60,851 nt of DNA from Roseobacter cerasinus (lineage in GTDB: Bacteria > Pseudomonadota > Alphaproteobacteria > Rhodobacterales > Rhodobacteraceae). Position 1 is the first letter of the stretch; each line of letters starts with the position of its first letter. Position numbers and translations under genes: made by a program. The DNA is taken from assembly GCF_009811755.1 (NCBI RefSeq), contig NZ_BLIV01000013.1, positions 1 to 60,851 of the forward strand, given 5' to 3'. The notes under the pieces were generated by a model. It was not told the DNA's origin and did not search any database. It saw nothing but the letters and a program-made list of their open reading frames with translations. Positions 839 through 59,171 of this stretch are shown here, piece by piece.

Positions 839-2440
839 ATGATGACAAAGTTTTCGAGTTCGACCCTGACCGCCACAGATCTGCGCGTGAACCCCACAGG
901 TCTTTTGTGGTTTGGCCTTCTGGTGATCGCGGCCCTGCCTGTCTTCTGGATGGGTCTGGCCTCTCTTCTGGTGGCCTGGAGCACGCCAGAATACAGTCAC
1001 GGCCCTCTCATACCGCTGATTTCATTGTATCTTTTCCTGCGTGAGCTGCGCAATGCGCCAGTGGACAGGTTGGATGCGCCGGTCAATCGCCGCCCCGGTC
1101 TGCTGGTGGTTGTGGCCAGCCTGGTGCTGGGCGTTTTCGGCAATCTGGTCCAGATCCCCGATATCATCACCTATGCCTTCATCATCTGGGTCGGCGGGGT
1201 CGTTCTGACCTGCTTTGGCTGGGAGCGCGGCAAACATCACCAGCTGCCGGTGCTGCACCTGATCTTCATGCTGCCGCTGCCGCAGTTTCTCTATTGGAAG
1301 CTCACGATTTTCCTGCAGGGCGTCAGCTCGGAGCTGGGCGTGTGGTTTGTCTCTCTCGCCGGCATCCCGGTCTATCTGGAAGGCAACATCATCGATCTGG
1401 GCGTCTACAAGCTGCATGTGGCCGAGGCCTGCTCGGGCCTGCGCTATCTCTTCCCGATCCTCAGCTTCTCTTACCTCACGGCGATCCTCTATCGCGGGCC
1501 GATGTGGCATAAGGCCGTGCTGCTGCTGGCCGCAGCGCCGATCACGGTGCTGATGAACTCTTTCCGCATCGGCGTGGTGGGTGTGCTGGTCAACAGCTAC
1601 GGCATCGAGCACGCCCAGGGTTTCATGCATTTCTTCGAAGGCTGGATCATCTTCCTGGCCTGCATCGGCATCCTCTTCCTGATGGCCATTGCCCTGCAGC
1701 GGCTGACGCCGAACCCGCTGCCGCTGGCTGATGCCATCGACCTGGACTTCCAGGGTTTCGGCGGCCAGTTCAAGAAATTCTTCGCACTCTCCAGCTCGCG
1801 CACCCTGGCAGCGACGGCCCTGCTGACCACCGTGATTGGTCTCGCCTTCGTGCTGGCCCCCTCGCCCCAGCGGCAGCATGTGGACCGGGACAGCTTCCAG
1901 CTGTTCCCGCGCGATCTGGCCGGGTGGTCCGGATCACAGCGGGCGCTGGATCCGGAGGTGGAGCGTGTGCTGGGCGCCAGCGACTATGTGAACGCCACCT
2001 ATCTGCACGCCGAAGAGGCCTCTTACGTGAACTTCTTCGTCGCCTATTACGACAAGCAGACCGAAGGCTCGGGCATTCACAGCCCCGAGGTCTGCCTGCC
2101 GGTGGGCGGCTGGGAGGTGTTCAGCCTGGACGCCCATGAGGTGACCATTGCCGACACGATCTATGGCACCTTCAACGTGAACCGCGCAGTGATCCAGAAG
2201 GGGCTGTCCAAGCAGCTGGTCTATTATTGGTTCGAACAGCGCGGGCGCCGCATGACCAATGATTTCGCCGCGAAAGCGACCGTGGTCTATGACAGCCTGC
2301 TGATCGGGCGGACCGATGGCGCCATGGTGCGCTATGTCACCCCCATCGCCGAGAATGAAAGCGAGGCGGACGCGGACGCCCGCCTGCAGCGGTTCATGGG
2401 TGTCAGCCTGGCACGGCTGCCGAGCTTCGTCCCTGAATAG
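839..2440 (+). CDS. xrtD: VPLPA-CTERM-type exosortase with fused EpsI domain (XrtD-like)
   Basis: Inner-membrane transpeptidase-like protease expected to cleave C-terminal sorting signals of exported proteins. The 533-residue product has about eight hydrophobic segments in its first 320 residues and the full exosortase triad: Cys198 in AEACSG, Arg243 in NSFRIG and His264 in the HFFEGW segment. The last 200 residues form an EpsI-type domain ([14 protein letters not shown]), a fusion typical of the exosortase D class that acts on VPLPA-CTERM proteins. The start is set at the ATG at 839, with AAGG seven bases upstream; an in-frame TTG at 782 lacks support. A matching substrate ending in a VPLPA motif is encoded at 51082-51768. 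Assignment to class D rests on the domain fusion plus that partner. Confidence 0.9.
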
Positions 2441-2446
2441 AGCCTC

Positions 2447-3568
2447 TTAAGGTGCCAGAACTGTGACCCCGCGGGCCGCCAGCCGGTCGCGGGAGCGCAG
2501 GAAGATCGCCTCCAGCTCTGCTGCTGTCTTGGCGCTCTGCCAAACGATCAGCTCCGCACAGTCGAAGCTGCCGACAAAGGCGGCGGCGTTGAAGTGCACA
2601 TCCCCCAGGGCGACATTCAGGTTACGCACGGTGCCCCGGCCCGTATTGCCCGCATTGACGATATTGGTGCCGGGCGTGCCGCGGAAATAGATGTGCTGCC
2701 CCGCGGCGCTGAGTGAGAGACCCAGGAAGTAGAAACTGTCGAGCGGCGAGTCATTGTCCAGCTCAACAACCTCGGAGCCTCCCTTGTTGCGCACATGCAG
2801 ATCGTTGGTGTCCCAGGTGAACGGAGACCAGCCCGCCTGCGCCGCCCCTGCCCCGCTGTCCATCACACCACCCAGAATGGCCCGTGTGGTGCCCAGAGGG
2901 CGCCGTACGACCGCACAGAAGGTGATATCGGCACTGTCGGCCACATGGCTCAGCAAACCGTTCGCCTGGCCCTGAATGCTCAGATAGCCGTTTGACCGCA
3001 CAGGCGCCGCCCCACTGGCGACCAGGGACTGCCCGGTGATCATGTCACTGTCCGTGGCATTGTCAGTGCCAAAGAACCAATGCCCCTGCGCATCCGCTTC
3101 CGCCGCTGCCGGAAGGCTTGTGGGGGCCACCGGCGTGCCAGACGCCGATGCTGAAAACGCCCCCGTGCCTTCTGCATTCACCGCAGCAACCCGATAGGCA
3201 TAGGCCGTCCCATTGGTCAGACCCGTATGTACAAAGCCTGTGCTGGCTGAGGTGCCGTCCGCCACAGTCCCAAAACCGGCACCGCTGTCCACCTCGATGG
3301 CATAATCCGTGATCGGGCTGCCTCCATTTCCGGGGGCAGACCAGGTCAGGGTGTTGCGCCCATCCCCTGGCGTGACGGACAGGGTGGTGACCTGCGCCGG
3401 CACAGAGGCGCTGACTGTGGCGATGGTGATCATACTGGGCGCCTCTTCGGAGAGGGCCTGCACAGTATATGTACCGTCCGGCAGCAGCCCGCTGACATTG
3501 AAGGGCAGATCGCCCTCCAGTGTTGTCACCACACCGGTCGATGTATTGCGAAAAGAAAACGTGGGCAT
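2447..3568 (-). CDS. Fibronectin type III plus lectin-like (ConA/LamG-type) fibre protein
   Basis: 373 residues in three parts. Residues 1-45 form a short module (FRNTSTG…PFNVSGLL…DGTY) that recurs at the N-terminus of the next gene upstream. Residues about 57-150 are a fibronectin type III domain (NTLTWSAPGNGG, GLTNGTAYAYRV). Residues about 160-370 are beta-rich and resemble a concanavalin/LamG-like carbohydrate-binding fold; this last point is inferred from pattern only. There is no signal peptide or membrane segment. A strong Shine-Dalgarno (AGGGAGG) precedes the ATG. It is the last gene of a four-gene operon that starts with a spike-base protein, which suggests a distal fibre or receptor-binding role. 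Confidence 0.65.
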   Translation of the reverse strand: MPTFSFRNTSTGVVTTLEGDLPFNVSGLLPDGTYTVQALSEEAPSMITIATVSASVPAQVTTLSVTPGDGRNTLTWSAPGNGGSPITDYAIEVDSGAGFGTVADGTSASTGFVHTGLTNGTAYAYRVAAVNAEGTGAFSASASGTPVAPTSLPAAAEADAQGHWFFGTDNATDSDMITGQSLVASGAAPVRSNGYLSIQGQANGLLSHVADSADITFCAVVRRPLGTTRAILGGVMDSGAGAAQAGWSPFTWDTNDLHVRNKGGSEVVELDNDSPLDSFYFLGLSLSAAGQHIYFRGTPGTNIVNAGNTGRGTVRNLNVALGDVHFNAAAFVGSFDCAELIVWQSAKTAAELEAIFLRSRDRLAARGVTVLAP

Positions 3569-3579
3569 ATCTGCCTCCC

Positions 3580-4572
3580 TTACGTAATCGTCGTACCGGC
3601 CACGGTCGGGGTTGGTACGGCGGAATAGGACAAAATTGTCTGTTGCGAGATCATCCAGCCACTCGGCACATTCTGTGCCGCGACGGCCAGAGCTGCAGCA
3701 TAGCGCGTGCCTAGCACCCGCATGGAGGCGGCATTGAAGTGGATCCCATCGAAGGCTGCCAAGCCGGTGCTGCTGACATAGGAGGAATAGGCCACGCGAT
3801 TTGGCGTATCCTCAAGCCCGGCCTGTACAGTCTGGCGGTTGCCATTGCCCGCGACCCAGGACGGCACCATGCCGCCCAGAAGAAAGGGCGTGGTGTCGTC
3901 AGCACCGGTGATCGCGCTGCGCAACGCGGCAACCATCGTATCAAGCCGACCTGCATGCGCCGCCGAAGCTGACACGCTGCCAGAGTCGGTTTCCCCTTGG
4001 TGCCACAGGATACCCCGGAAGATGAAATCAGGATGTGCAGCCAGAACCGCGTTGGTGCGGGCCACGGCCTCCTGAAAGAGATCGTCTCCGGGATTCCAGC
4101 GGTTGTCGCTGAACCCCGTCCCCCCCCAGGATGCGGGCACCAGAACCAGATCGACACCAGGGTTTTGCGCCAGATAATCGATGCTGAACTGCAGCGCCCA
4201 CCCCATGCCCCCCGCGACGCGCTGCGTCCCGTGGTCGAGCGGCCGGGCCGCCGGGATCAGGGTCTGATCCGCATTGTCCGTGATATAGGGCGCCTCTGCC
4301 CGGGCGGGACTGCGGCTCCATTGGCGCACATTGGATGGCCAGTCCGCGCCTCCGTCGAAGGCTGCGCGGCTGGTTGCATTGGATTGCCCGGCGATCAAAA
4401 AGACATGCGTTGTCCGGTTTGAAGACACGGACAGCGTCTCACTTGCCCAGGGGCTGGTGGTCGCGACCTGCCACGATCCTTCCCCAAGGACCGTTGACGC
4501 ATCAAAGGGCACCGGGCCTGACGCGGTGACCAGCTCCCCCGTCGCCGTGTTGCGGAAAAGAAAATCGACCAT
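3580..4572 (-). CDS. SGNH/SASA-family carbohydrate acetylesterase with spike-type N-terminus
   Basis: 330 residues. After a 45-residue N-terminal module shared with the downstream gene (FRNTATG…PFDAS…GEGSW) comes a sialate-O-acetylesterase-like domain (SASA family): nucleophile Ser in IAGQSNA, the LWHQGETD block, and the Asp/His pair in DGIHFN. Such enzymes remove acetyl groups from sugars. There is no signal peptide, which argues against ordinary secretion and fits a particle-borne depolymerase or esterase, as on phage tail spikes. The ATG lies four bases after the preceding stop, so the two genes are translated together. The esterase fold is well supported; the substrate (possibly acetylated capsule or EPS) is inference. 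Confidence 0.75.
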   Translation of the reverse strand: MVDFLFRNTATGELVTASGPVPFDASTVLGEGSWQVATTSPWASETLSVSSNRTTHVFLIAGQSNATSRAAFDGGADWPSNVRQWSRSPARAEAPYITDNADQTLIPAARPLDHGTQRVAGGMGWALQFSIDYLAQNPGVDLVLVPASWGGTGFSDNRWNPGDDLFQEAVARTNAVLAAHPDFIFRGILWHQGETDSGSVSASAAHAGRLDTMVAALRSAITGADDTTPFLLGGMVPSWVAGNGNRQTVQAGLEDTPNRVAYSSYVSSTGLAAFDGIHFNAASMRVLGTRYAAALAVAAQNVPSGWMISQQTILSYSAVPTPTVAGTTIT

Positions 4573-4576
4573 GCGT

Positions 4577-4999
4577 TCAAACCTCGACTATGGATGCGGT
4601 CACGGTTGGCTGCGGCGGGATACCCGGGGTCCCGAGGATCATCGCCCCGTCCAGAAACCAGCCACCAAAGACCAGAGAAATGGTGTTGCTATAGGCAAAG
4701 CGCGGCGCATATCCGGCCCGGAAACACCGCACCAGAACCCGGATATCTGCCCCGGAATCGGCAAAGGTTTTCTGATAAATAGAGCCTGTTTCCCCTGGAA
4801 TAGGGACTGAATTGCGCAACCACTGGCGCGTGACAATGGCATCCGCCGGCTCCACCACCTGCACGGGCTGCAGCGTCAGCACGCCGCTCAGCGTGTCATC
4901 CCCCACAATCACCGGAGCCGCAGCCAGCACGATCGGAGGCAGAGAGGGGGCCGCAACCCCGCCCGGGGCATTGACCCCGATGGAAAGCCCAAGCTGCAT
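4577..4999 (-). CDS. Ig-like domain protein of spike operon
   Basis: 140 residues. The middle (about 35-110) has the pattern of a bacterial/phage Ig-like domain: GDDTLSGVLTL, then RQWLRNSVPIPGETGSIY, then DSGADIRVLVRC. The N-terminus is Gly/Pro/Ala-rich and the C-terminus is a beta-rich tail. It has no signal peptide. Its ATG overlaps the stop of the spike-base gene (TGATG), so translation is coupled. It would fit a connector or shaft between base and fibre, but function is inferred only from operon position and fold. Confidence 0.6.
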   Translation of the reverse strand: MQLGLSIGVNAPGGVAAPSLPPIVLAAAPVIVGDDTLSGVLTLQPVQVVEPADAIVTRQWLRNSVPIPGETGSIYQKTFADSGADIRVLVRCFRAGYAPRFAYSNTISLVFGGWFLDGAMILGTPGIPPQPTVTASIVEV

Positions 5000-5259
5000 C
5001 AGCTCAGACCAACAATGCCTGTTGCATCCGTTCCCGTGGCCCAGACCCGGCGCGCGCGCAGCGGAAAGGCGATGCCTGCGGCCACATAGACCTGCGCTTC
5101 GTCCCCGTTCACCGTGGTGACCCGGACAACACCCGCCGAGGAGACATTGATGGCCCGCGTGGCCCGCGGCAAATCGGCACTGTCACTGGGCACAATGGCT
5201 GTCAGCGAGGCGGGCGGGCTGTCCAGGCCGGGTTGGTAGGATTCGAAAAAATCGGTCAT
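4999..5259 (-). CDS. Spike base protein, Rcc01079 (GTA head-spike) family
   Basis: 86 residues and all beta in pattern. It shows the features I know from the RCAP_Rcc01079 family: a PSDSADLPRATRAINV block, a central Val-rich strand pair and the C-terminal PLRARRVWATGTDAT block ending near IVGLS. In Rhodobacter capsulatus the family forms the base of head spikes on gene transfer agent particles, which help bind the capsule. The start ATG at 5259 has AGGAG seven bases upstream; the reading frame is open further upstream but without a ribosome site. It heads an operon with an Ig-like protein, an acetylesterase and a lectin-like protein. No capsid, portal or terminase gene is present on this replicon. 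Confidence 0.7.
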   Translation of the reverse strand: MTDFFESYQPGLDSPPASLTAIVPSDSADLPRATRAINVSSAGVVRVTTVNGDEAQVYVAAGIAFPLRARRVWATGTDATGIVGLS

Positions 5260-7438: not shown

Positions 7439-8392
7439 TCACTGGTCCTTGAGCCAGGCCTGCAGGCGCTTTTGCAGCTCAGGCGTCACCGCCTTGCCGC
7501 TCAAGGTAAGGGTCAATCCAGACCGGCCCGCCTTGGTTTTGAGAAAGACACCCGTCGCGATTTCTTCCGCTGCGGGCGCTGGTTTGGCAGCGCTTTGCGT
7601 GCGGTCCGCCAAGGTCTCTGTGAGCAACGACAGCTCCGCCTCGGGTGTCTCCGGCACAGCCTTGCGCAGCCGATCTTTTAGCCGCACAGCAAACTCCGCA
7701 TCCTTGTCCAGCCGGGCAGCCAGCGCCAGCCCCAGACGTTCGGCGATGGATGTGGGGAAGGTGAGCAGATCACCCAGCCGATCATGCAGGGTGACAAAGC
7801 TGTTGATCTTCGACCGCTTCGCCCGGCTGGCTGTGCTGAAGAGCGCCTGCACCGCCTTAGCGGTTGTGGGGTAAAGCCCCAGCTCCGCCGCTTTCGCTGC
7901 GATGCGCGCGCGCTCGAAGTAGGACAGCCCCACCCGGATCTCATTTTCCTCGACCATGGCGAGATAGGCTTCGGCTGCGGTGTCCGGTTTGCGGATGATC
8001 GCTAGAACGGTCCCAGCCTCCAGCTGCCGCAGCGCCTGGACCCGCCGCCAGCCGGAGATCAGCCCATAGCGCCCCGGCGCCAATTCCAGCACCTCGATGG
8101 GCGTCTGTTGGCCGCGCTCCTCAAGGCTCTGCATCAGGCTCTGCATCTCATCATCATCGATGGTGAGCCGGTCACGGATCAGGTGGTCGGCCTCGATGGC
8201 CTCCAGCGGCAATTCCAGCAGCAGGCGTCCCTGATCCTTGGCCGCCTGAAACGCATCTGCCACCTCTTCCAGGGCGGCCTGGGTGGCCGCTTCACCGGCC
8301 ACATGGGCAATGGGTGCGCGCAAGGGAGTCTGCGGCGCACGGGGCAGGGGTGTTTCGCTGCGCGCAGGCGTCAGCCGTTTACGCTTGGCCAT
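7439..8392 (-). CDS. parB: Plasmid partition protein ParB
   Basis: 317 residues. A basic N-terminus is followed by a ParB nuclease-like/CTP-binding region (LELPLEAIEADHLIRDR…SLEERGQQTPIEV, then GLISGWRRVQALRQL and MVEENEIRVGLSYFERA) and a helix-turn-helix region that would bind parS. The C-terminus, after a linker, would dimerise. The start at 8392 has AGGAGG upstream and overlaps the parA stop by 14 bases, so both are one operon. The likely binding site is the palindrome at 7419-7436. It forms segrosomes that ParA moves, which keeps a low-copy plasmid stable. Confidence 0.92.
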   Translation of the reverse strand: MAKRKRLTPARSETPLPRAPQTPLRAPIAHVAGEAATQAALEEVADAFQAAKDQGRLLLELPLEAIEADHLIRDRLTIDDDEMQSLMQSLEERGQQTPIEVLELAPGRYGLISGWRRVQALRQLEAGTVLAIIRKPDTAAEAYLAMVEENEIRVGLSYFERARIAAKAAELGLYPTTAKAVQALFSTASRAKRSKINSFVTLHDRLGDLLTFPTSIAERLGLALAARLDKDAEFAVRLKDRLRKAVPETPEAELSLLTETLADRTQSAAKPAPAAEEIATGVFLKTKAGRSGLTLTLSGKAVTPELQKRLQAWLKDQ

Positions 8393-9785
8393 AAGATGCC
8401 TCCTTCTCCTCCGCTGCGGCCAGCTCATCCCGCCGCCAGCAACCCAGGAGCAGCCGTTTGAAGGCCGCATAGGTCTCGTCAAAGGTCTCGCGGCCCCGCA
8501 CGTAGGTGTCGCGGTTGAAGTCGCGGTAATCCGCCTCGTAGATGCCCGAGACCTGCTCGCCCGCCTGCCCGATGAGTGCGGTGAAATCCTGCCGATGCGG
8601 CGAGAGCACTGGCCCCAGATAGGCCTGCATCAACGCCGCCAGCTCCCCTTGCTGGGAGGCGTCATAGCGAGTGACCACGGCGCGCACCGCATCCCATTCA
8701 AAGGCCAGTTCTTCGCGGCCCAAGGCGCGGGACGCCACGTTCTCGCCCTCCTCGATGGAGGCGAAGGTGGAATGCAGCATGTCGAAAAATCGCCCCGTGC
8801 TGTCGAACTCCAGAAAGGAGGCGCCCAGAGGCACCAGCAGGATATCAGCGGCGGCCAGCCCGTTGATCGTGAGATAGCCCAGGGCAGGGGGCGTATCGAG
8901 GAAGACCAGATCATACTCATCGAGCACCCCATCTTCAGCCAGCGTATCGGCCAGTGCATCCCAGAGCTTCCACTGCCGTAGCCCAGTGCGCCAGACGGGG
9001 ATCTGGAACTCCGCCCAATAGAGGTTCAACTGTGCGCCAATCAAATCGATGTTGGGCCAGTGCGTGCCCTGAATAAGATCCTGCGCTTTCAGCCCCATGG
9101 CCTCGCTGAGCGTGTCGTCGAAGGGCAGGGGGGGCTCACCCCGATCAATGCGGCGCTGGTTTTCATCGCGCAACCGTGCCCCGTAGTGGCGGGCCATGAG
9201 CGGAAACACCGTCTGCCATTCATCCGCCACCTGCCCGCCGAGGATCGAAGTCATGGACCCCTGGCTGTCCAGATCGATCACCAGCACCTTGTAGCCGTCG
9301 AGGGCGGCTGACATGGCCAGATGCGCTGCGGTGGAGGTCTTGCCCACGCCGCCTTTGAAGTTGGTCACGGCGACGATCTTGGCGGGCAGACCTTTGGGCC
9401 GGTAGGGCAGGTACTCCTTGGCCTTGGAGCCTTCGGCGCCAAAGAACGCGCGCAGGCGTAGCACCTCATCCAGTGTGAACCATTTGGCGCCGCCCTCACT
9501 TTCCGAGCGACCCTGCGGCAGATCGGGGTTGTTCTTCAGCACCCGGCGAAAGTGCTGCGGCGCCACGGGGATCAGATATTTTGTGATCTCCCAGGTGGAG
9601 AACAGACGCAGGCTTTTCCGTCCCGATCCATCCAAACCCCTGCTGGCCAGATCCTCCCGCCCCGCCGCACAGGCGGAAGCGATCTGGGCAAAACCAGCGG
9701 TGCCCATGGGTGCGTCCAAGGCCGCCAAGGCTGCATCCGGGGCAATGTTGAAGTAGGGTGGAAGATCATGGGATGATCTGGACAT
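8379..9785 (-). CDS. parA: Plasmid partition ATPase ParA
   Basis: 468-residue ParA of the large type, with about 150 N-terminal residues that include a helix-turn-helix-like region (for autoregulation) before the ATPase. The deviant Walker A is FKGGVGKTSTAAHLA, followed by VLVIDLDSQGS, and the Walker B-like FLDTPPALG. It powers plasmid segregation with ParB. Start at 9785 (MSRSSHD) suits the family; an in-frame upstream start at 9881 cannot be excluded because neither has a strong ribosome site. It diverges from repA across the origin region, the arrangement known from RepA-type plasmids of Rhodobacterales. Confidence 0.92.
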   Translation of the reverse strand: MSRSSHDLPPYFNIAPDAALAALDAPMGTAGFAQIASACAAGREDLASRGLDGSGRKSLRLFSTWEITKYLIPVAPQHFRRVLKNNPDLPQGRSESEGGAKWFTLDEVLRLRAFFGAEGSKAKEYLPYRPKGLPAKIVAVTNFKGGVGKTSTAAHLAMSAALDGYKVLVIDLDSQGSMTSILGGQVADEWQTVFPLMARHYGARLRDENQRRIDRGEPPLPFDDTLSEAMGLKAQDLIQGTHWPNIDLIGAQLNLYWAEFQIPVWRTGLRQWKLWDALADTLAEDGVLDEYDLVFLDTPPALGYLTINGLAAADILLVPLGASFLEFDSTGRFFDMLHSTFASIEEGENVASRALGREELAFEWDAVRAVVTRYDASQQGELAALMQAYLGPVLSPHRQDFTALIGQAGEQVSGIYEADYRDFNRDTYVRGRETFDETYAAFKRLLLGCWRRDELAAAEEKEASYGQA

Positions 9786-10028
9786 GGGCTGCTCAATGTT
9801 CGCTGTTTTCCTCAATATATCCGAAAACACGATACATGGAATAGAAAACAATACCCCTTCTATATTTCTAAGTAAAATCAATGGTCAAAATCGACAGGCA
9901 GGCCGGTCTTATATCCCTTCCAGCAAAAAAATTCTTGTTAAATATCTGTTATACTATAGTTATGGAGTATCTCTGTTTTTCCATCTCATTGAAATTGTGG
10001 GTTTTATCTTCTCTTTTTTGCTAAAGGC

Positions 10029-13615: not shown

Positions 13616-14992
13616 TCAGATATGTCGCTCTAACGCGGCGCGCAGCCCGGTCAATGCGGATGCCAGCAGCTGGTCAGCCGATATGGGATCACGGCTTTCC
13701 ACATAGAGGCGCAGCTCTGGCGCGTTGCCGGAGGGCCGGAGGTGGAGGACCTCGCCCTCTGCCAGCGTCATGCGCAGCCCGTCGGTGAGATCAAGCGCGG
13801 TTTCCTGCTTTCCGAGAAGCGCCAGGAAACCAGCGCGCGCGGCAGGATCGGCCTGCCAGGCCCCCAGCAGCGGCCCGCTCTTGCTCTGTTCCACCTCCTG
13901 CAACCTGTCCGCGACAGTGACGACCGCTGGCTCCTGTGCCACGCGGGCGGCGACGCCGCCTTCGCGGCTGGCGTAAAGCACCGTGAGCAGCGGCAAGGTG
14001 CAATCGCGGGTCACCAGCGGGGCGAGCCCCCCCGCCGGCCCTTGCGCCGTGAAGCCCAGCAGAAAGCCGCCATTGGCCTCATAGCCCACGACCGCTCCAC
14101 CCCCTGCCATCGCGGCAATCACGTAAGGCGAGCCAATGCGGGTTTGCCGCACGTCCTTGAAGGCTTTCTGCGTCACACCGCTGTTGGAGGAAATCGGCGT
14201 GACGATGACTTCAGCGCCCAAAGCTTCGGCAGTGATCTGGCCCAGAATGTCGCCGGGGATCACGCGGCCTGTCTCATCCGCCAAAAGCGGGCGGTCGGAA
14301 TCGCCATCGGTTGAGACTAAGGCATCCAGTCTGTGCTCTGCCACCCAAGCCTCGATTTGCGTGCGCACCTCCGGAGCCACCGCCTCGGTGTCGACGGGAA
14401 TGAAGCTCTCGGAGCGACCAAGCTCAATCACCTCCGCCCCCAGCCCGGCCAGAATTGCGGCCAGCGCATCGCGGCCCACGGCACTATGGGCATAAAGACC
14501 GATGCGTTGCCCTTGCAGTGCCTGCGCTCCAAAAGCCTCGACATACCGCGCGATATAGCGGGCGTTGGCTTCTGCATCCTGCTCCAGCGGGCCGCGCGGG
14601 CCATCCGCCCCCTGCCCCAGATGTGTCAGGATCGCGACCTCATCTGCCTTGGTGATCTCACCGGCGCGGGTGTAGAACTTCAGCCCGTTGCGATCTGCCG
14701 GGATATGGCTGCCGGTGACCATCACGGCCCCGCCGCCTGCGGCCTCAGCCGCCAGCGCCAATGCGGGTGTCGGCAACGCACCACAATCGATCACACGGGT
14801 ACCCATGGCCCGGGCGGCGCGGATCACATCCTCAGCGATGCGGGGAGACGAGGGGCGCAGATCGCGGCCCACGCAGATCACCCCGCCGGTGCCGCAAGCT
14901 GTCAGAAACCCCTGAATATGCGCCGTGATCTGCGCAGGCGTCAGATCACTGATCCGCCCGCGCAGACCGCTTGTGCCAAAGCTGAGCGGCAC
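13616..14992 (-). CDS. manB: Phosphomannomutase / phosphoglucomutase
   Basis: 458-residue hexose-phosphate mutase of the alpha-D-phosphohexomutase superfamily. All four signature sites are visible: phospho-Ser in TGSHIP, metal site DGDSDRP, sugar site GYEANGG, and phosphate site RPSGNAPELR. It supplies mannose-1-phosphate for ManC and possibly glucose-1-phosphate for RmlA. GTG start with a single base after the rfbA stop, so it is the last gene of the rmlCBDA operon and coupled to it. Confidence 0.92.
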   Translation of the reverse strand: MPLSFGTSGLRGRISDLTPAQITAHIQGFLTACGTGGVICVGRDLRPSSPRIAEDVIRAARAMGTRVIDCGALPTPALALAAEAAGGGAVMVTGSHIPADRNGLKFYTRAGEITKADEVAILTHLGQGADGPRGPLEQDAEANARYIARYVEAFGAQALQGQRIGLYAHSAVGRDALAAILAGLGAEVIELGRSESFIPVDTEAVAPEVRTQIEAWVAEHRLDALVSTDGDSDRPLLADETGRVIPGDILGQITAEALGAEVIVTPISSNSGVTQKAFKDVRQTRIGSPYVIAAMAGGGAVVGYEANGGFLLGFTAQGPAGGLAPLVTRDCTLPLLTVLYASREGGVAARVAQEPAVVTVADRLQEVEQSKSGPLLGAWQADPAARAGFLALLGKQETALDLTDGLRMTLAEGEVLHLRPSGNAPELRLYVESRDPISADQLLASALTGLRAALERHI

Positions 14993-14993
14993 G

Positions 14994-15860
14994 TCAAAGC
15001 GCGCTCAGATAGGTCCCATAGTCGTTCTTGGCGTATTTCTTGGCCTCAGTCGCCAGATCCTCGCGCGTGATCCAGCCCAGCTGGAAGGCGATCTCTTCGG
15101 GGCTGCCGATCTGCAGGCCCTGCCGCCGCTCAATGGTGCGCACGAAGTTGCCCGCATCCAGCAGGCTGCCATGGGTGCCGGTGTCGAGCCAGGCATAACC
15201 GCGCCCCATGCGTTGCACCGTAAGTGTGCCTTCCGCCAGATACATCTCCAAAAGCGTGGTGATCTCCACCTCGCCCCGCGCCGAGGGTTTCACAGCCCGC
15301 GCCTTGGCAGGGGCCGTGCCATCGACGAAATAGAGACCGGTGACAGCGAAATTCGAGGGCGGCACCTCGGGCTTTTCGATGATGCGGCGCGCCACGCCGT
15401 TCTCGTCAAAGTCCACCACACCGTAGCGTTCCGGATCCGCCACCTGATAGCCAAAGACCGTCGCACCGCTGTCTTGCGCATCCGCCGCCGCCATCAGTTC
15501 GGGCAGCCCGTGGCCAAAGAAGATATTGTCCCCCAACACCAGCGCCGAGGGGCTGCCCGCCAGAAAATCTTCGGCCAGGATGAAAGCCTGCGCCAGCCCG
15601 TCAGGCGAGGGCTGTTCGATATAGGTGAGCTGCAGCCCCCATTGCGACCCGTCCCCCAGCATGCGCTGGAACTGATCCTGATCCTGGGGCGTGGTGATCA
15701 CCGCAATCTCGCGGATGCCCGCCAGCATCAGGGCCGAGAGCGGATAATAGATCATCGGTTTGTCGTAGATCGGCAGGAGCTGTTTCGAGACCCCAAGCGT
15801 GATCGGGTAAAGCCGCGTGCCCGAGCCGCCCGCCAGGATGATGCCTTTGCGCTGTGTCAT
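14994..15860 (-). CDS. rfbA: Glucose-1-phosphate thymidylyltransferase RmlA
   Basis: 288 residues. The nucleotidyltransferase signature [16 protein letters not shown] opens the protein, followed by KPMIYYPLS and LGDNIFFG, all diagnostic of RmlA. It makes dTDP-glucose, the first step to dTDP-L-rhamnose. Its ATG overlaps the rfbD stop (ATGA). Length and motifs are normal for the family. Confidence 0.97.
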
Positions 15861-16723
15861 GTGGATCGCTCTCCAAGATCGTTCAGGATATCGCTGAGGC
15901 CTGCGCGCCAATCCGGGCGCGGCACGCCCAGGACCGTTGTCAGGGTTGTGCAGTCCATGCGGCTGTTCAGGGGCCGCACCGCCGGGGTGGGATAGTCCGA
16001 GGAGGGGATATCCGTCACGGCGCAGTCAATGCCCGCCTGGGCAAAGATCTCGCGGGCGAAATCCGCCCAGCTCACATCCGGGCCACCGCTGCAATGATAA
16101 ATGCCGGTCTTGCCCTCCGGATCCTCAAGCAGACCCTTTGCCGCCCCGATGCAGGCATCCGCCAGACCCGCCGCCGGGGTCGGCCCGCCGATCTGGTCGG
16201 CGACGATGGTGAGGGCATCGCGCTCCTTACCCAAACGCAGCATGGTTTTCACAAAGTTATGCCCATGCGAGGACACCACCCAGGAGGTGCGCAGGATCGC
16301 ATAAGCGCCTCCGGCCTGAATAACCCCCTCTTCGCCCGCAAGCTTGGTGCGCCCATAAGCGCCCAGCGGGCCGGTGGGGTGATCCGGTGTAAAGGGCTGA
16401 TCGCCGCTGCCGTCAAAGACATAATCGGTCGAGACCTGCACAAACGGCAGCCCGCGTGCGGCCGCTGCCTTGGCCATCAGCGCGGGCGTGGTGCCATTGA
16501 TCTGCAGCGCCAGGTCTTCCTGCTCTTCGGCCTTGTCCACGGCGGTATAGGCCACCGCATTGATCACCGCATCCGCATCGGTGGCCTCGATAAAGCCCAC
16601 GCAGCTGGCGGGGTTGGTGAAATCCGCCTCCTCCAGCCCGCGCACTTCCAGGGCCACATCACCTGCGCGGCGGATCAGCTCCTGGCCCAGCTGGCCGATT
16701 TCGCCAAAGACCAGAAGCTTCAT
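15857..16723 (-). CDS. rfbD: dTDP-4-dehydrorhamnose reductase RmlD
   Basis: 288 residues starting [16 protein letters not shown], with the NADPH site and [13 protein letters not shown] and the catalytic YGRTKLAGE. It catalyses the last step of dTDP-L-rhamnose synthesis. The ATG overlaps the rfbB stop and the stop overlaps the rfbA start, each by four bases. A longer reading frame upstream is only overlap with rfbB. Confidence 0.96.
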
Positions 16724-17796
16724 GCTTTCACACCCAACCGGGTGCCCACGCCCTTGCGGTCCTGCAGGGCGCGCCACCAGTCCTCATTGTCGAGATACCA
16801 CTGCACGGTCTTCTCCAGCCCCTCTTCCACGGTGACGGAAGGCCGCCAGCCCAGCTCTTCACGCATGCGCGTGGGGTCGATGGCATAGCGCGCGTCATGT
16901 CCAGGCCGGTCGGTCACAAAGGTGATCTGATCGGCATAAGAGGGTGCGTTGTGGCCCACCCCTTCGCCATTTGAGGAGGGTGTCTTGGGCCGCAGCCTGT
17001 CCAGGATGCCGCAAAGCGTCTGGACCAGTTCCAGATTCGTGCGCTCGTTCTCACCACCGATGTTGTAGCTGCGCCCCAGCTTGCCCTTTTCCAGCACCGT
17101 GAGCAGCGCATCGGCGTGGTCTTCCACGTAGAGCCAGTCGCGAATGTTGGAGCCATCGCCATAGATCGGCAGCTCCTTGCCTGCCAGAGCATTAAGGATC
17201 ACCACGGGGATCAGCTTTTCCGGGAAGTGGTAAGGCCCGTAGTTGTTGGAGCAATTGGTCAGAACCACGGGCAAACCATAGGTCTCGGCCCAGGCCCGCA
17301 CCAGATGGTCGGAGGCCGCTTTGGAGGCCGAATAGGGCGAACGCGGATCATAGGGTGTGTCTTCGGTGAACTGCCCCTCCGCGCCCAAGGAGCCGAAGAC
17401 CTCATCGGTAGAGATATGGTGGAAGCGGAAGCTTTCCGGCTTGCCCGCCTGTGTCCAGTAAGATCGCGCGGCCTCCAGCATCTGATAGGTGCCGGTGATA
17501 TTGGTCTCGATAAAATCACCCGGCCCGTCGATGGAGCGGTCCACATGGGATTCCGCCGCCAGATGCATCACCGCATCCGGCTTATGGGTGGCAAAGATCC
17601 GATCAAGGGCGGCACGGTCGCGGATGTCGGCCTGCTCGAACGCATAGTTCGGGCTTTCTGCCGCCTCGGCCACATTCTCCAGACAGGCCGCATAGGTCAG
17701 CGCGTCGAGGTTCACCACCTCATATCCGCGCGCCACAGCCAGCCGCACAACGGCAGACCCGATAAAGCCCGCGCCTCCGGTGACAAGCAATTTCAT
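16720..17796 (-). CDS. rfbB: dTDP-glucose 4,6-dehydratase RmlB
   Basis: 358 residues: NAD site [34 protein letters not shown], catalytic Tyr/Lys in [11 protein letters not shown] and the [18 protein letters not shown] block are all textbook RmlB. Second enzyme of the rhamnose pathway. Begins five bases after rfbC ends. Confidence 0.97.
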
Positions 17797-17801
17797 CGAA
17801 A

Positions 17802-18365
17802 CTATCCTTTATACTCAAATGGGCTGTCGAACGCGTCCAGCCCCGGGGCTGCGGCATCTTTCTCGGACAAGACAGGCTCTAAATTACCTAAATCCCAGTT
17901 AATCCCGATGGTCGGGCAGTCGAAGCGCACAGCACCGTCACACTCCGGCGCGTAATAGTCGGAGCATTTGTAGACCACCTCGGTCTCGGACTGCCGCGTG
18001 GCAAAGCCGTGCAGGAAGCCTGCGGGCACCAAAAGCTGCTTGCCGTTCTCAAAGCTCAGCTCGACGCCCACCCATTGGCCATAGGTGGGGGAGCCGCGGC
18101 GGATATCGACCGCCACGTCAAAAAGCGCCCCGCGCCCGCAGCGCACCAGCTTGTCCTGCGCGTGGGGCGGCGATTGGAAATGCAGCCCACGCACGGTGCC
18201 CGCCTGCATAGAAAGGGAGTGATTGTCCTGGACCCAGCCGTAATCGAGACCGGCCTCTGCCATCTGACGCTTGCTCCAGCTTTCGCTGAAGAATCCACGC
18301 TCATCGCCAAACCGTTTGGGTGTCAAAATGACAACACCGTCGAGCTTCGTTTTCTCTATCTGCAC
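17802..18365 (-). CDS. rfbC: dTDP-4-dehydrorhamnose 3,5-epimerase RmlC
   Basis: 187-residue cupin. It has [37 protein letters not shown] with the catalytic His, and [22 protein letters not shown]. Third enzyme of the pathway and first gene of the rmlCBDA-manB operon. The promoter must lie in 18366-18527, but no clear one is visible. Confidence 0.97.
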
Positions 18366-18527
18366 AGCGGGTACCTTTACTCAACCTGAGGTCACGGGTC
18401 AGATAGCAAGCTGCCTTGCGGCTGTCATCCACAAAGCTTGCAGAGGCCTATGACCTGTGCCCATCTTGCCTGAAACCACAGCATCAGGCACAAATCGGCA
18501 TCGGCGGATTTGCGCAGACCTGTATCT

Positions 18528-19940
18528 TCAGGGGCGGTTATAGATGTCGTCGTGGCGTTGAATGTCATCCTCGCCCAGATAAGCGCCGGTCTGCACTTCG
18601 ATCAGATACATCGGCACATGCCCAGGGTTGGCCAGCCGGTGCTGCGTGCCCAGGGGGATGTAGACGGACTGGTTTTCCGTCACCAGTTGCACCTCCTCCC
18701 CGATGGTCACCTCGGCGGTCCCTGCCACGACAATCCAGTGCTCGGAGCGGTGCAGATGGCTTTGCAGGGACAGCCGGCCATGGGGTTTGACCATGATGCG
18801 TTTGACCTGAAAGCGTGCACCGAGGCAGAGCGTCTCATACCACCCCCAGGGTCGGTAGAAGCGGGGATAGTTGGTGGCCTGTTCGGCGGAGGCAGCCTTC
18901 AGCAGGGCTACGGCCTCCTTGACCTGCTGGGCGGCCCCCATATCCGCCACCAGCACCGCGTCGCGCATGGCCACAGCGACAATATTCTTCAGCCCCACAC
19001 CAACCAGATGCAGGTTGTCGTCTTCACTGCGCAGGAAACTGTCCTGGCAGTCCAGCGCAGTGGTGTTTCCCTGCTGCACCAGCCCTCCCTCATCCGGACC
19101 GGAGGCCGCCCAGAGCGCATCCCAGCTGCCCAGATCGGACCAGCCACAGCCCAAAGGCACGGCCATGACGCCCTCCGCCTGCTCCATCACCGCATAATCG
19201 ATGGAGGCTGCGCGCACCGGGGCAAAGGCGTCCTCTCCCAGCCGCAGAAAGCCCAGGTCTTCGCTGCGCGTCGCCACGGCTGCCCGGCAAGGCGCCATCA
19301 TGTCCGGGGCATGGGCCTCGAAGGCGGCAAGGATGTCGCAGACGCGCCAGAGAAACAGCCCGGCGTTCCACAGGTGCCGTCCTCCGGCCACGAACTGTGC
19401 TGCCGTCTCTGCATCGGGTTTTTCGGTGAAGCTGGTTAGCGCCACGGCCTGCCCGTCTGTCGGCGCGGCTGTCAGTTCCAGATAACCGTAGGCCGTTTCG
19501 GGTCGGTCGGGGGTCACCCCGAAAGTGACGAGATGACCTTGTGCGGCTGCCTCGGCTCCGACCCGGATGGCCGCCTGAAAGATGTCCCGCCCGCTGATGA
19601 TATGGTCCGACGGGGCCACCAGCATCAGCGCATCAGGCGTCTCTTCCAGCAGCAGGGCGGCACAAAGGATCGCAGGCGCCGTGTTGCGCAGCGCAGGCTC
19701 GATCACCACCTGCGCGTCCGCCAGCCCGATATCGGCACATTGTTCCATCACGATGAAGCGGAAATCCGCGTTGGTCATGACCAGGGGGGCTGCGAACTCC
19801 GGCCCTGTGAGCCGCTTCAGCGTGCTCTGGAACAGGGTGTCTTCGCCGATCAGGCGGCCAAACTGCTTTGGAAAGGCCCGGCGCGAGGAGGGCCAGAGGC
19901 GGGTTCCAGAGCCACCGCACAGGATAACCGGATAGATCAT
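18528..19940 (-). CDS. manC: Mannose-1-phosphate guanylyltransferase / mannose-6-phosphate isomerase
   Basis: 470-residue two-domain ManC/CpsB. The N-terminal nucleotidyltransferase has LCGGSGTRLWPSSRRAFPKQF and VAPSDHII; the C-terminal cupin has VKPHGRLSLQSHLHRSEHWIVV and a VYIPLGTQHRLANPG block. It makes GDP-mannose and can convert fructose-6-phosphate to mannose-6-phosphate. With manB this gives a complete route to GDP-mannose; no GDP-fucose genes follow, so mannose itself is the likely residue. It lies 162 bp downstream of the point where the rml operon starts, on the same strand. Confidence 0.95.
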   Translation of the reverse strand: MIYPVILCGGSGTRLWPSSRRAFPKQFGRLIGEDTLFQSTLKRLTGPEFAAPLVMTNADFRFIVMEQCADIGLADAQVVIEPALRNTAPAILCAALLLEETPDALMLVAPSDHIISGRDIFQAAIRVGAEAAAQGHLVTFGVTPDRPETAYGYLELTAAPTDGQAVALTSFTEKPDAETAAQFVAGGRHLWNAGLFLWRVCDILAAFEAHAPDMMAPCRAAVATRSEDLGFLRLGEDAFAPVRAASIDYAVMEQAEGVMAVPLGCGWSDLGSWDALWAASGPDEGGLVQQGNTTALDCQDSFLRSEDDNLHLVGVGLKNIVAVAMRDAVLVADMGAAQQVKEAVALLKAASAEQATNYPRFYRPWGWYETLCLGARFQVKRIMVKPHGRLSLQSHLHRSEHWIVVAGTAEVTIGEEVQLVTENQSVYIPLGTQHRLANPGHVPMYLIEVQTGAYLGEDDIQRHDDIYNRP

Positions 19941-51953: not shown

Positions 51954-52784
51954 TTACGAATAATAATCGTAGCCGTATTCCTTGCCCATATAGCGACATT
52001 TGTTCAGCACCACCCCCAGAACATTGGTCCGTTCCGAGATATCACGCTCACAATTGTCCACCTCACTGATCGAGGTGCTCTCGGCAGCCGCCACAAGCAG
52101 CGCACAATCGACAGTGTCGGCAAAGCCGACCATATCGTCACTCACGAGTGTGGGAGGCATGTCGAAAATCATGATCGTCGGTTGATACACCCGTTCAACC
52201 TCATCAAGTGCAGTGCGCATCGTATCGCTCTGCAACAGCTCCGACGGATGCCGGGCGGATCCGTGATTGGCGCCCACGAGAATATTTTCCGAAATGCGCA
52301 CCAGATGCTCCTCGATCGGAGCACGCCCTTCAAGCGCATTGGCAAACTGGCTGGTGCCGCGTGGCATGCCCAGAGTGGCAGCCACATTGGGACGCCGCAG
52401 ATCCATTTCGATCACGGCAACCCGCTGTTCGGGCTGGCGCGCAATGCTGAAAGCAAGCGACAGGCTCAGCGTGGTCTTGCCACAGGCGGCATTGGGCGAG
52501 GTGACAGCCAGCCGGTTCCAGCCGTTGTCACGCATCATCTGCAACACTTTGGTGCGCAACATATCGATGGGCGTCGACAATTGATTGCGCTCATATGCCG
52601 GAATGCGATTTGCCGCCAGAAGCTGCGGATCAGGCTCAAAGACCTTGATGGCCTTCCAGGCTTCCACAAGATTGGCGCTGCCCTTGATCGGAGTGGCAGG
52701 TCTGGCATTGGCCTTGTCGGCCGGTTTCGCGACGGTCCCGCGTTTCGCGCGCGCGCGCTCAAGAGCAACCTGGATACGTTCCAT
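51954..52784 (-). CDS. BY-kinase-like tyrosine kinase domain (CpsD/CapB type)
   Basis: 276 residues, the cytoplasmic half of a split bacterial tyrosine kinase. The P-loop is in AVTSPNAACGKTTLSLSLA, Walker A' in VIEMDLRRPNV and Walker B in IMIFDMPPTL. The C-terminus carries a five-Tyr cluster (YMGKEYGYDYYS) expected to be autophosphorylated. Its activator would be the GumC-like protein encoded just downstream in coordinates. Together they control chain length and export. The first P-loop positions (PNAAC) differ from the usual P-G-x-G-K, so activity deserves a check. Confidence 0.85.
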   Translation of the reverse strand: MERIQVALERARAKRGTVAKPADKANARPATPIKGSANLVEAWKAIKVFEPDPQLLAANRIPAYERNQLSTPIDMLRTKVLQMMRDNGWNRLAVTSPNAACGKTTLSLSLAFSIARQPEQRVAVIEMDLRRPNVAATLGMPRGTSQFANALEGRAPIEEHLVRISENILVGANHGSARHPSELLQSDTMRTALDEVERVYQPTIMIFDMPPTLVSDDMVGFADTVDCALLVAAAESTSISEVDNCERDISERTNVLGVVLNKCRYMGKEYGYDYYS

Positions 52785-52857
52785 ATCTTCTACATCTCAC
52801 CTTTCACATCGCCCAATCAAGCCGCGCACAAACGCGACCTGGCACATCAAAGACACA

Positions 52858-54411: not shown

Positions 54412-54414
54412 AAC

Positions 54415-55266
54415 TCAGGTCTTTTCCAAAAAGAGAACATTCGACATAAACAAACCATCCCGCAGGACGTTCCGGACCATATCAGCGGTCACGACCTCCT
54501 GCTCTTCGGATGAGGCATATACCAGAGAAAAGTCTGCGAGTTGGTTCACAAGACGCGGAATTCCCCGGGCAGACCGCGCGATAAGCCCGATCGCCTCATC
54601 GGTGAACATATCCCTGCCGGCCCCCGCGACCTTCATACGGTGTTTGATGTAGTCCGTCACCGTATCCACGGTCATGGCCGATAGATGCACATTGGCTGCG
54701 ATTCTCTGGCAGAATTGCTCCAAACCGGGCTGGCGCACAATATCGCGCAGTTCTGGCTGACCGACAAGCACAAGCTGCAAGAGCTCATCCTTGTTGGTGT
54801 TGATGTTGGTGTACATGCGCAGCTCTTCCAGCGCCTCACGGTCGAGGTTCTGCGCCTCGTCGAAGATCAGGACAACCCGGCGACCCTGACTATACTCCTC
54901 AATCAGATACATCTGAAACTGGTTGAAGAGATCGACGTAGTCCGACCCCGGCACCACCGGCTGGGACAGCGCCATCATCACCCAGCGCAACAGCTCGCCC
55001 CGCCCGCCCTGCGCATTGGAGATCAGGCCGATGGTGATATCGCCCTCGATCTGTTTGAGCAGATATTGCAGCAGCGTCGTCTTGCCTGCCCCCACATCCC
55101 CTGTCACCAGCGTGATGGGCGCATGGGTAAAAAGACCATATTCCAACATGTTGAAGGCCCGCTTATGGGCATCGGACCAATACAGAAAATCCGGATCCGG
55201 GACGAGCGAAAACGGGCGCTCGGTCAGGCCGAAAAACTCTGTATACATATCAAAGGAGCTGGACAT
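54415..55266 (-). CDS. Exosortase/EPS-locus secretion ATPase (ExeA-like AAA)
   Basis: 283 residues: YTEFFGLTERPFSLVPDPDFLYWSD is the start typical of the PEP-CTERM-locus ATPase family (ExeA/GspA-like). Walker A is TGDVGAGKTTLLQ, Walker B VVLIFDEAQNLD, sensor region LVLVGQPELRD, and an arginine-finger-like GIPRLVNQLAD. It has no peptidoglycan-binding domain. In exosortase loci it always accompanies GumC and the kinase; its mechanical role is unknown. ATG at 55266 is used, with 55272 equally possible. Confidence 0.88.
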   Translation of the reverse strand: MSSSFDMYTEFFGLTERPFSLVPDPDFLYWSDAHKRAFNMLEYGLFTHAPITLVTGDVGAGKTTLLQYLLKQIEGDITIGLISNAQGGRGELLRWVMMALSQPVVPGSDYVDLFNQFQMYLIEEYSQGRRVVLIFDEAQNLDREALEELRMYTNINTNKDELLQLVLVGQPELRDIVRQPGLEQFCQRIAANVHLSAMTVDTVTDYIKHRMKVAGAGRDMFTDEAIGLIARSARGIPRLVNQLADFSLVYASSEEQEVVTADMVRNVLRDGLFMSNVLFLEKT

Positions 55267-56568: not shown

Positions 56569-56696
56569 TCCAGGCCTTCTGTGATCTTGATTACGTCTTT
56601 GTTATTACAGATCTGATAGCTTCACATTTAGGCCGTTGACCATTACGTTTTAGTCGGCTGCCTGCTGGATTTTACCGACATCTGTGGAGTGTTCAG

Positions 56697-59147: not shown

Positions 59148-59148
59148 G

Positions 59149-59171
59149 ACGGGGCTGCAAAACAGCCCCGT
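59149..59171 (+). terminator. GC-rich hairpin after TPR lipoprotein gene
   Basis: ACGGGGCTG and CAGCCCCGT form a perfect 9-bp stem with a CAAAA loop, one base past the stop codon. No T-run follows. It may stop part of the transcription before the Wza-like gene, or protect the upstream message. Confidence 0.5.

What the first reader, a model, noticed from the sequence alone, without database searches (positions are those of the whole stretch)
2447..5259. A GTA/phage-like spike operon on a biofilm plasmid
Four coupled minus-strand genes encode an 86-residue Rcc01079-type spike base, an Ig-like protein, an SASA acetylesterase and a fibronectin/lectin-like protein. None has a signal peptide and no other phage gene is present. 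In R. capsulatus such spikes let gene-transfer-agent particles bind the capsule. A plasmid that builds a new polysaccharide coat and also carries a matching spike with an esterase could retarget the host's GTA to cells wearing the same coat. This would couple plasmid-encoded surface identity with DNA exchange among kin. That model is inference.
Basis: partly seen in the sequence, partly recalled or inferred. Interest (0 to 1): 0.85.

Follow-up and report, generated by a model that had tools for sequence, protein, structure and literature searches.

The report
Plasmid-borne head spike for gene-transfer particles
A marine bacterium's plasmid that builds a sugar coat also carries genes for the sugar-binding spikes of the phage-like particles its host uses to pass DNA around, so the plasmid may set both the coat and the key that recognises it.

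Summary
Window 2447-5259 (minus strand) is a tight four-gene operon: an Rcc01079-family spike base (106 bits, cut-off 28), a 140-aa fibre, a SASA acetylesterase and an Fn3/lectin-like protein. The window is a closed circular plasmid (127-bp terminal overlap) with a PF10134 replicase, ParA/ParB and many polysaccharide genes. The host genome has an RcGTA-type head-tail cluster. The only HK97 capsid and HK97-type portal found are the GTA's, and the only spike base found is this plasmid copy. The pattern recurs: 27 public plasmids carry the base, 18 of the 25 annotated ones beside polysaccharide genes; in the host's family 63 of 100 spike loci lie within 9 kb of polysaccharide genes, against 2 of 40 controls. 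A Thioclava plasmid fuses the esterase and lectin parts behind a similar anchor. In R. capsulatus head-spike genes also adjoin capsule genes, so the kind is known; the plasmid-borne, enzyme-bearing version, acting in trans on a chromosomal GTA, is a new variant. Presence in particles and match to the plasmid's own coat are inferred.

The parts
4999..5259 (-). p1, head-spike base protein, 86 aa, Rcc01079 family
   Evidence: NF048002 106.1 bits; phrog_12296 9.7e-22; PDB 6tb9 Rcc01079 1.6e-9; 95% identical in Roseobacter sp. MH60115
4577..4999 (-). p2, short spike fibre/anchor protein, 140 aa, perhaps Ig-like; start codon overlaps the p1 stop codon
   Evidence: four relatives at 63-84% identity; weak similarity to T4 Hoc; distant homologue directly behind a spike base in L071 (30% identity)
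4973..4999 (-). Star-peptide-like anchor MQLGLSIGV (residues 1-9 of p2): hydrophobic at 1,3,5,7,9
   Evidence: sequence; compare RcGTA fibre residues IALGLGLGL that bind the base pentamer (PMC7296036, passage); alternation kept in relatives, e.g. MQVGVSLGI
3580..4572 (-). p3, SASA-family carbohydrate acetylesterase, 330 aa
   Evidence: PF03629 5.9e-31; GQSN, WHQGETD and DGIHF motifs present
2447..3568 (-). p4, Fn3 plus lectin-like C-terminal domain, 373 aa; shares its N-terminal ~40 residues with p3
   Evidence: PF00041 3.8e-12; phrog_4390 over 155-370; two close relatives have a precomputed PF13385 Laminin_G_3 domain (family name as given); p3/p4 N-termini alignment
854..2440 (+). XrtD exosortase, convergent with the spike operon
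   Evidence: TIGR04152 686 bits
5423..6073 (+). rhomboid-family membrane protease, divergent from the spike operon
   Evidence: PF01694 1.5e-22
7439..9881 (-). ParB and ParA partition genes
   Evidence: PF02195, PF13614
10207..11253 (+). plasmid replication initiator protein A
   Evidence: PF10134 6.2e-99
13616..19940 (-). nucleotide-sugar supply: phosphomutase, rmlA, rmlD, rmlB, rmlC, GMP/PMI
   Evidence: TIGR01207 RmlA, TIGR01479 GMP_PMI; rml-type Pfam domains; rml stretch 71% identical in DNA to Rhodovulum plasmid L034
23553..49298 (.). most of the other polysaccharide genes: UDP-sugar dehydrogenases, acyltransferase, Wzy_C protein, glycosyltransferases, sulfotransferase; also a serralysin-like protease
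51954..59944. polysaccharide export region: CpsD-like ATPase, chain-length-type protein (named by gene order only, no Pfam hit), AAA ATPase, sugar transferase, PrsT-like TPR protein (below its cut-off), Wza-like export protein
   Evidence: same gene set annotated beside the spike in Rhodovulum plasmids
60725..60851 (.). 127-bp repeat of window 1-127: assembly overlap of a circular contig, true size 60,724 bp
   Evidence: ends joined in relative L216

Best explanation
The operon encodes a complete receptor-binding head spike for the host's chromosomally encoded gene transfer agent (RcGTA type). Five copies of p1 would sit on capsid pentamers; the N-terminal star peptide of p2 would plug the five-fold ring of p1 and hang the fibre outside; p3 (acetylesterase) and p4 (Fn3/lectin) would ride on the same spike, to deacetylate and bind acetylated polysaccharide. 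Because the same plasmid builds a polysaccharide (rml, acyltransferase and sulfotransferase genes), the likely ligand is that coat: the plasmid carries both lock (coat) and key (spike), so a cell that gains a new coat still exchanges DNA with cells wearing it. Shown: family membership, operon, anchor peptide, host GTA cluster, no other spike base found in the host, linkage of spikes to polysaccharide loci. Inferred: assembly on the particle, attachment of p3 and p4, ligand, effect on transfer.
For: p1 is a spike base. p2 starts with five alternating hydrophobics, as does the RcGTA fibre peptide seen bound to the base pentamer; a strict regular expression for such an alternation fits 31 of 63 ORFs adjacent to spike bases against 70 of 1889 control ORF junctions, 14 of 25 on plasmids and 33 of 48 in genome-contig loci (sets overlap in part, and the expression was written after seeing the first set). 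The host has an RcGTA-type cluster: terminase, portal, protease, capsid, connectors, GTA-gp10, tail protein, RcGTA tape measure, Dit, hub, NlpC, megatron; one HK97 capsid and one PF04860 portal, both in it; one spike base, this one. 63 of 100 spike stretches have polysaccharide genes against 2 of 40 control stretches, and 0 of 100 have one of nine GTA genes; 10 of 15 on contigs over 1 Mb. 18 of 25 annotated spike plasmids show polysaccharide genes. Thioclava p5 fuses the p3 and p4 domains in one protein directly behind its spike base. Esterases directly behind the base recur on 6 of 25 annotated plasmids, three of them near-identical. 97 of 102 spike-positive genomes have GTA_TIM against 162 of 193 spike-negative (p 0.005; lists compared by hand, test). 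Base is 95% identical to MH60115 while p2-p4 are 73-80%, as expected if the base meets a conserved capsid (90%). In R. capsulatus capsule genes adjoin and are co-regulated with head-spike genes (PMC10218006, passage).
Against: No similarity of p2 to the Rcc01080 fibre was shown beyond the anchor peptide (Rcc01080 sequence not at hand). 36 of 99 spike loci have no adjacent downstream ORF in my test and 32 of 63 fail the strict motif; polysaccharide linkage is no stronger in motif-bearing loci (16 of 31, 19 of 32 without, 27 of 36 with no adjacent ORF). 5 of 102 spike-positive genomes lack GTA_TIM, and 2 of 20 distinct spike-bearing genomes lack the GTA capsid, a third has a stop codon in it. 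Spike bases also occur in phages (34 records) and on a phage-plasmid. In the 63 genome-contig loci, which reach beyond the family, 29 have polysaccharide hits and 5 have phage/GTA structural genes. Base identity does not track host capsid identity (rho 0.04, n = 17), so tuning of base to capsid is not shown. 7 of 25 annotated plasmids show no clear polysaccharide gene in the stretch read. Fibre/neighbour co-inheritance (42 of 136 pairs, permutation mean 6.3) is dominated by one cluster (25 of 42), not corrected for descent, and absent for the PS-like subset alone.
Confidence: 0.62

Rival explanations
1. The operon decorates a phage (past or superinfecting), not the GTA: a module left by or borrowed from a phage or phage-plasmid.
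For: Spike bases are found in 34 phage records, and the Tritonibacter p5 plasmid carries one beside phage tail genes; outside Rhodobacteraceae some loci have capsid or other phage/GTA genes nearby (L212, L218, L222, L234, L239).
Against: No other PF05065 capsid or PF04860 portal, and no PF05136 portal, was found in the host genome (other capsid families not searched); no phage structural gene seen on the plasmid; 0 of 100 spike stretches in the family have one of nine GTA-type genes within 9 kb (other phage types not searched) while 63 have polysaccharide genes; all four genes are present in MH60115 over nearly full length.
Confidence: 0.17
2. The proteins are not virion parts: they act in or outside the cell on the plasmid's polysaccharide (for example an intracellular or non-classically secreted deacetylase and adhesin), using a borrowed phage fold.
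For: Esterase plus lectin beside polysaccharide genes would fit coat editing; 36 of 99 spike loci lack an adjacent fibre ORF, yet 27 of these 36 have polysaccharide neighbours.
Against: No signal peptides by eye; in a 21-row alignment the base keeps an invariant N-terminal D and a near-invariant F, the N-terminus being the capsid-binding end in RcGTA (PMC7296036, passage); the anchor peptide is kept in four relatives of p2.
Confidence: 0.13
3. A real GTA spike, but its ligand is a different polysaccharide (chromosomal capsule or a competitor's coat); location on this plasmid is only hitch-hiking in a variable region.
For: Spikes also lie in polysaccharide loci on contigs over 1 Mb (10 of 15); p2 and p4 have no ligand data; three Thioclava plasmids carry the esterase spike away from clear polysaccharide genes.
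Against: Strong recurrent linkage to polysaccharide genes and shared neighbours for homologous fibres (with the limits given there); adjacency and co-regulation of capsule and spike genes in R. capsulatus.
Confidence: 0.25

Closest known systems
RcGTA head spike of Rhodobacter capsulatus (Rcc01079 base, Rcc01080 fibre; GhsA/GhsB)
   Same: Same base family; fibre with an alternating hydrophobic N-terminal peptide; genes lie outside the GTA structural cluster and next to polysaccharide genes (PMC10218006, PMC7296036, PMC8601537, passages).
   Different: Here on a plasmid; in place of one 325-aa fibre there are three proteins (140-aa anchor, acetylesterase, Fn3/lectin); no similarity of p2 to Rcc01080 shown beyond the anchor.
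TspA tailspike of RcGTA (preprint PMC13420450, abstract and passages)
   Same: A GTA-borne enzyme that acts on biofilm polysaccharide and raises transfer.
   Different: TspA is a baseplate-associated tailspike encoded in a conserved genome module; this is an esterase in a head-spike operon on a plasmid.
Biofilm plasmids of roseobacters with a rhamnose operon (Michael et al. 2016, seen only in reference lists)
   Same: Plasmid with rml genes, replicase, ParA/ParB and polysaccharide export genes.
   Different: Head-spike genes on such plasmids are not mentioned in the listings and passages I saw; the 2016 paper itself is not held.
Phage fibres/tail proteins with SASA-type esterase domains
   Same: Esterase domain on a virion protein (phrog_25867 'tail protein' matches p3).
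   Different: No phage genome around it; the only HK97 capsid found in the host is that of the GTA.

Membership tests
RCAP_Rcc01079 spike base (NF048002) | profile score over curated cut-off (28 bits) | tested here: met
   106.1 bits, positions 1-84 of 85
RCAP_Rcc01079 spike base (NF048002) | jellyroll fold, pentamer on capsid five-fold | not tested
   homology to solved Rcc01079; no structure prediction was run for p1, and pentamers cannot be predicted here
RcGTA-type head spike | fibre partner with alternating hydrophobic N-terminal peptide, gene next to the base gene | tested here: met
   MQLGLSIGV at p2 start, 1-nt overlap with p1; motif enriched after spike bases
RcGTA-type head spike | fibre homologous to Rcc01080 | tested here: inconclusive
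   Rcc01080 sequence was not at hand; no family hit for p2 and no GTA chain in the PDB sequence search
RcGTA-type head spike | host makes an RcGTA-type particle with a matching capsid | tested here: inconclusive
   head-tail cluster present and capsid matches Rcc01687, E 5.5e-178; production of particles not testable
RcGTA-type head spike | spike found on purified particles and needed for capsule binding | not testable with these tools
   needs experiment
Biofilm plasmid (rhamnose operon type) | circular plasmid with RepA-type replicase and rml genes | tested here: met
   127-bp overlap, PF10134, rml genes
Biofilm plasmid (rhamnose operon type) | loss of plasmid abolishes biofilm (feature recalled) | not testable with these tools
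   needs curing
SASA acetylesterase (PF03629) | profile score over cut-off and catalytic motifs | tested here: met
   108.3 bits, cut-off 24.8; GQSN, WHQGETD, DGIHF present (role of the motifs recalled)

The most novel reading that the evidence does not exclude
Roseobacter-group polysaccharide plasmids carry matched lock-and-key cassettes: the genes for a surface coat plus a head spike, at times with an esterase, that re-keys the host's chromosomal GTA to that coat. Gaining the plasmid would move a cell into a new DNA-exchange group defined by the plasmid rather than by ancestry.
Probability: 0.45. Interest if true: 0.87.

Novelty: new variant of a known kind. Interest (0 to 1): 0.74.

Why it matters
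Why GTAs persist, and who receives their DNA, are open questions; kin-restricted delivery is one proposed answer (PMC10883770, passages). Here a likely receptor-binding part of the particle lies on plasmids with genes for the likely receptor, in twelve genera among the 18 plasmids counted, while in the host examined the capsid gene lies in a GTA cluster on another, 705-kb contig. This gives a concrete, removable two-part system to test whether DNA-exchange groups are set by mobile coat/spike cassettes.

Tried and rejected
AlphaFold models of p2 (mean pLDDT 57) and p4 (47) were too poor for more than 'Ig/FN3-like'. Correlation of base identity with host capsid identity: none (rho 0.16 with, 0.04 without MH60115; 18 and 17 distinct genomes). 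It neither supports tuning of base to capsid nor vertical descent; two relatives with 90-91% identical capsids carry bases of 55-59%, which points to swapping, but the genomes were picked for base similarity. A capsid-contact acid (Glu12 in RcGTA): window has Asp13, but a crude pattern count over 91 bases found the site in 85 and an acid in only 20, so I do not lean on it. An N-terminal D-x-F/Y was seen in only 59 of 91 bases with a crude choice of start codons, although D is invariant and F near-invariant in the 21-row alignment. PS-like neighbours alone do not follow fibre homology; all non-backbone neighbours do. Co-occurrence with GTA is weak evidence because GTA_TIM is in 259 of 295 genomes, and some weak GTA_TIM hits may be other phages. 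The 40 control stretches lie on GTA-bearing contigs 100-175 kb from GTA_TIM hits in 40 genomes, with and without spikes, and are not matched for plasmid or island setting; hence the separate count on contigs over 1 Mb. The motif control counts all ORFs of 80 aa or more in those stretches, spurious ones included. The plasmid count by annotation is my reading of product names; H7 and H27 show no annotation in the stretch, and H18 (acyltransferase, sulfotransferase) was counted as 'no'.

Considered and rejected: chance ORFs (family scores exclude it for p1, p3 and p4; p2 has relatives with conserved sequence); a prophage remnant on the plasmid (no other phage structural gene seen).
Full report
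1. Observation. p1 matches the Rcc01079 spike-base family in three libraries: NCBIfam 106 bits against a cut-off of 28, PHROG 12296 'tail fiber protein', and the solved RcGTA spike base (39% identity in the alignment). p3 is a SASA esterase and p4 an Fn3 protein with a PHROG-4390 C-terminal part. p3 and p4 share an N-terminal stretch of about 40 residues, M-x-x-F-x-F-R-N-T-x-T-G.

2. Setting. The window ends overlap by 127 identical bases and are adjacent in a relative, Roseobacter sp. MH60115 contig 10, where 12.3 kb around the operon is colinear at 80% DNA identity. The contig is therefore a circular plasmid of 60,724 bp with a PF10134 replicase and ParA/ParB. Most genes named in the rest are for polysaccharide synthesis and export, with an XrtD exosortase next to the operon. 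The host is probably a Roseobacter: its same-genus genome G266 shares contig length, hit position and capsid hit with L185, labelled 'uncultured Roseobacter sp.'. This is inference from labels.

3. Host. G000 (4.47 Mb, 99.99% complete) has one GTA_TIM hit, on a 705-kb contig, in a head-tail cluster. Of ten ORFs first scanned nine hit NCBIfam models: portal, prohead protease, capsid, major tail protein, RcGTA tape measure (348 bits), distal tail, hub, NlpC peptidase and megatron (1907 bits). The tenth is a terminase large subunit by Pfam and PHROGs, and four small ORFs are head-tail connector, head completion, tail completion and GTA-gp10 proteins; a 114-aa ORF had no hit, and a serine acetyltransferase gene flanks the cluster, a neighbour reported for RcGTA-type clusters (PMC8224337, passage). 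I did not identify a small terminase. The capsid matches Rcc01687 over nearly its whole length, E 5.5e-178. It is the only PF05065 capsid found in the genome, the only PF04860 portal found is in the same cluster, and no PF05136 portal was found. The only spike base found is on the plasmid. So if the spike docks on an HK97-type capsid made by this cell, the GTA is the sole candidate found; other capsid families were not searched.

4. Mechanism. [quoted passage not shown] p2 starts M-Q-L-G-L-S-I-G-V, hydrophobic at 1, 3, 5, 7 and 9, and in four relatives these vary within hydrophobics (one has Leu for Gln at 2) while G4, S6 and G8 stay. A strict regular expression for such an alternation, written after I had seen the N-termini, was found in the first 13 residues of 31 of 63 ORFs directly after spike bases and at 70 of 1889 ORF junctions in control stretches (Fisher p 3e-25). 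With the same expression it is 14 of 25 on plasmids and 33 of 48 in genome-contig loci; these sets overlap in part (190 loci, 179 distinct bases). 36 of the 99 loci in which the base was found had no adjacent ORF. I infer that p2 is the anchor fibre.

5. p3 and p4 as spike parts. In Thioclava plasmid p5 (60 kb, polysaccharide genes around) a single 540-aa protein directly behind the spike base starts MIGIGSGF (a near-variant that fails the strict expression) and contains both the SASA part of p3 (E 9e-51) and the C-terminal part of p4 (E 3e-23). Sialate O-acetylesterase or SGNH hydrolase directly behind the base is annotated on 6 of 25 annotated plasmids: Limimaricola, four Thioclava (three of them near-identical) and Cereibacter. 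SASA is in 4 of 38 first downstream proteins scanned, a chosen list of motif-bearing or near-variant loci that counts four plasmid loci too. p3 keeps GQSN, WHQGETD and DGIHF, the SGNH-type motifs as I recall them. Where p3 and p4 attach is not known; their shared N-terminal module is a candidate.

6. Generality. NF048002 is in 102 of 295 genomes of the family (101 over cut-off), 11 of them with two or three matches. I took 18-kb stretches (shorter at contig ends) around one place in 100 of these 102 genomes (all but the own genome and G223, which is below cut-off) and 40 control stretches. Using 26 window polysaccharide proteins as queries at 1e-8, 63 of 100 spike stretches and 2 of 40 controls have at least one hit (p 6e-11); three or more: 32 of 100 and 1 of 40. 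None of the 100 has a hit to one of nine GTA proteins. On contigs over 1 Mb it is 10 of 15. The linkage does not depend on the motif: 16 of 31 motif-bearing, 19 of 32 without, 27 of 36 with no adjacent ORF. Of 63 genome-contig loci found with closer bases, some outside the family, 29 have a polysaccharide hit and 5 a phage/GTA structural hit. Of 72,556 plasmid records 27 carry the base. By annotation in the stretch read (8-20 kb each side, cut at record ends) 18 of 25 annotated ones show polysaccharide genes; not so H8, H13, H14, H15, H16, H18 and H23, the last a phage-plasmid; H7 and H27 show no annotation there.

7. Modularity. Between the window and MH60115 the base is 95% identical, p2 80%, p3 73%, p4 79%, the GTA capsid 90%. 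Four other genomes with capsids 83-91% identical carry bases of only 55-59%. 123 of 179 distinct loci have a fibre of 120 aa or more; they fall in 55 fibre clusters, 41 of them singletons. Fibre-homologous pairs with base identity under 70% share a non-backbone neighbour in 42 of 136 cases (permutation mean 6.3, 0 of 2000 reach it), but 25 of the 42 come from one cluster (Marinovum, Sulfitobacter, Roseivivax and others), shared descent is not removed, and the PS-like subset alone shows nothing. In that cluster the fibre is more alike than the base in all 38 pairs with base identity under 70% (fibres 54-67%, bases 40-63%). I read this as fibre and locus moving together while the base is exchanged or diverges, weakly shown.

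8. Literature. Head-spike genes rcc01079/80 sit outside the GTA cluster (PMC8601537, passage); [quoted passage not shown] GTA-borne TspA degrades biofilm (preprint PMC13420450, abstract and passages). GTA genes co-evolve with biofilm genes, with kin-restricted delivery proposed (PMC10883770, passages). Six searches (at most 20 papers listed each) showed no paper on plasmid-borne GTA head spikes in their listings; Hynes 2016 and Michael 2016 are not held and Westbye 2016 was not looked up.

9. Verdict. The spike identity is secure (about 0.95). Use on the host GTA about 0.7; the plasmid's own coat as ligand about 0.5 to 0.6 given that. New variant of a known kind. The general rule that spike bases in the host's family mostly live in polysaccharide loci, plasmids included, was not found in print by the searches above.

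Noticed in passing
window 60725-60851 and 1-127: Exact 127-bp terminal repeat; the record is a closed circle of 60,724 bp with an assembly overlap.
   Followed up: yes
L252 (Tritonibacter mobilis plasmid p5, NZ_CP110388.1): A 41-kb plasmid with phage tail and lysozyme genes carries an unannotated spike base and an alternating-peptide fibre.
   Followed up: partly
L234 (Sphingomonas baiyangensis) and L222 (Cohaesibacter MAG): Spike base within 10 kb of GTA-like structural genes (L234: TerL, portal, capsid, tail protein, Dit, hub, megatron), unlike the ectopic arrangement in the host's family.
   Followed up: no
L238 (Brevibacillus reuszeri), L241 (Paenibacillus periandrae): Spike-base-like hits in Bacillota, L238 followed by an ORF starting MIIGVGVGMGA.
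   Followed up: no
G040, G110, G143, G191, G207: Four to seven GTA_TIM matches in one genome; several GTA-like elements or related prophages.
   Followed up: no
L037, L250, L254, L259, L260, L261, L263: On these plasmids the spike base follows parB directly; their fibres are more alike than their bases.
   Followed up: partly
window 28549-31149: Serralysin-like M10/RTX metalloprotease on the polysaccharide plasmid; an M10 peptidase also lies near the spike on the Palleronia plasmid (L244).
   Followed up: no
L032:16585-17418: A cysE-type serine acetyltransferase gene directly follows the host's GTA cluster.
   Followed up: no
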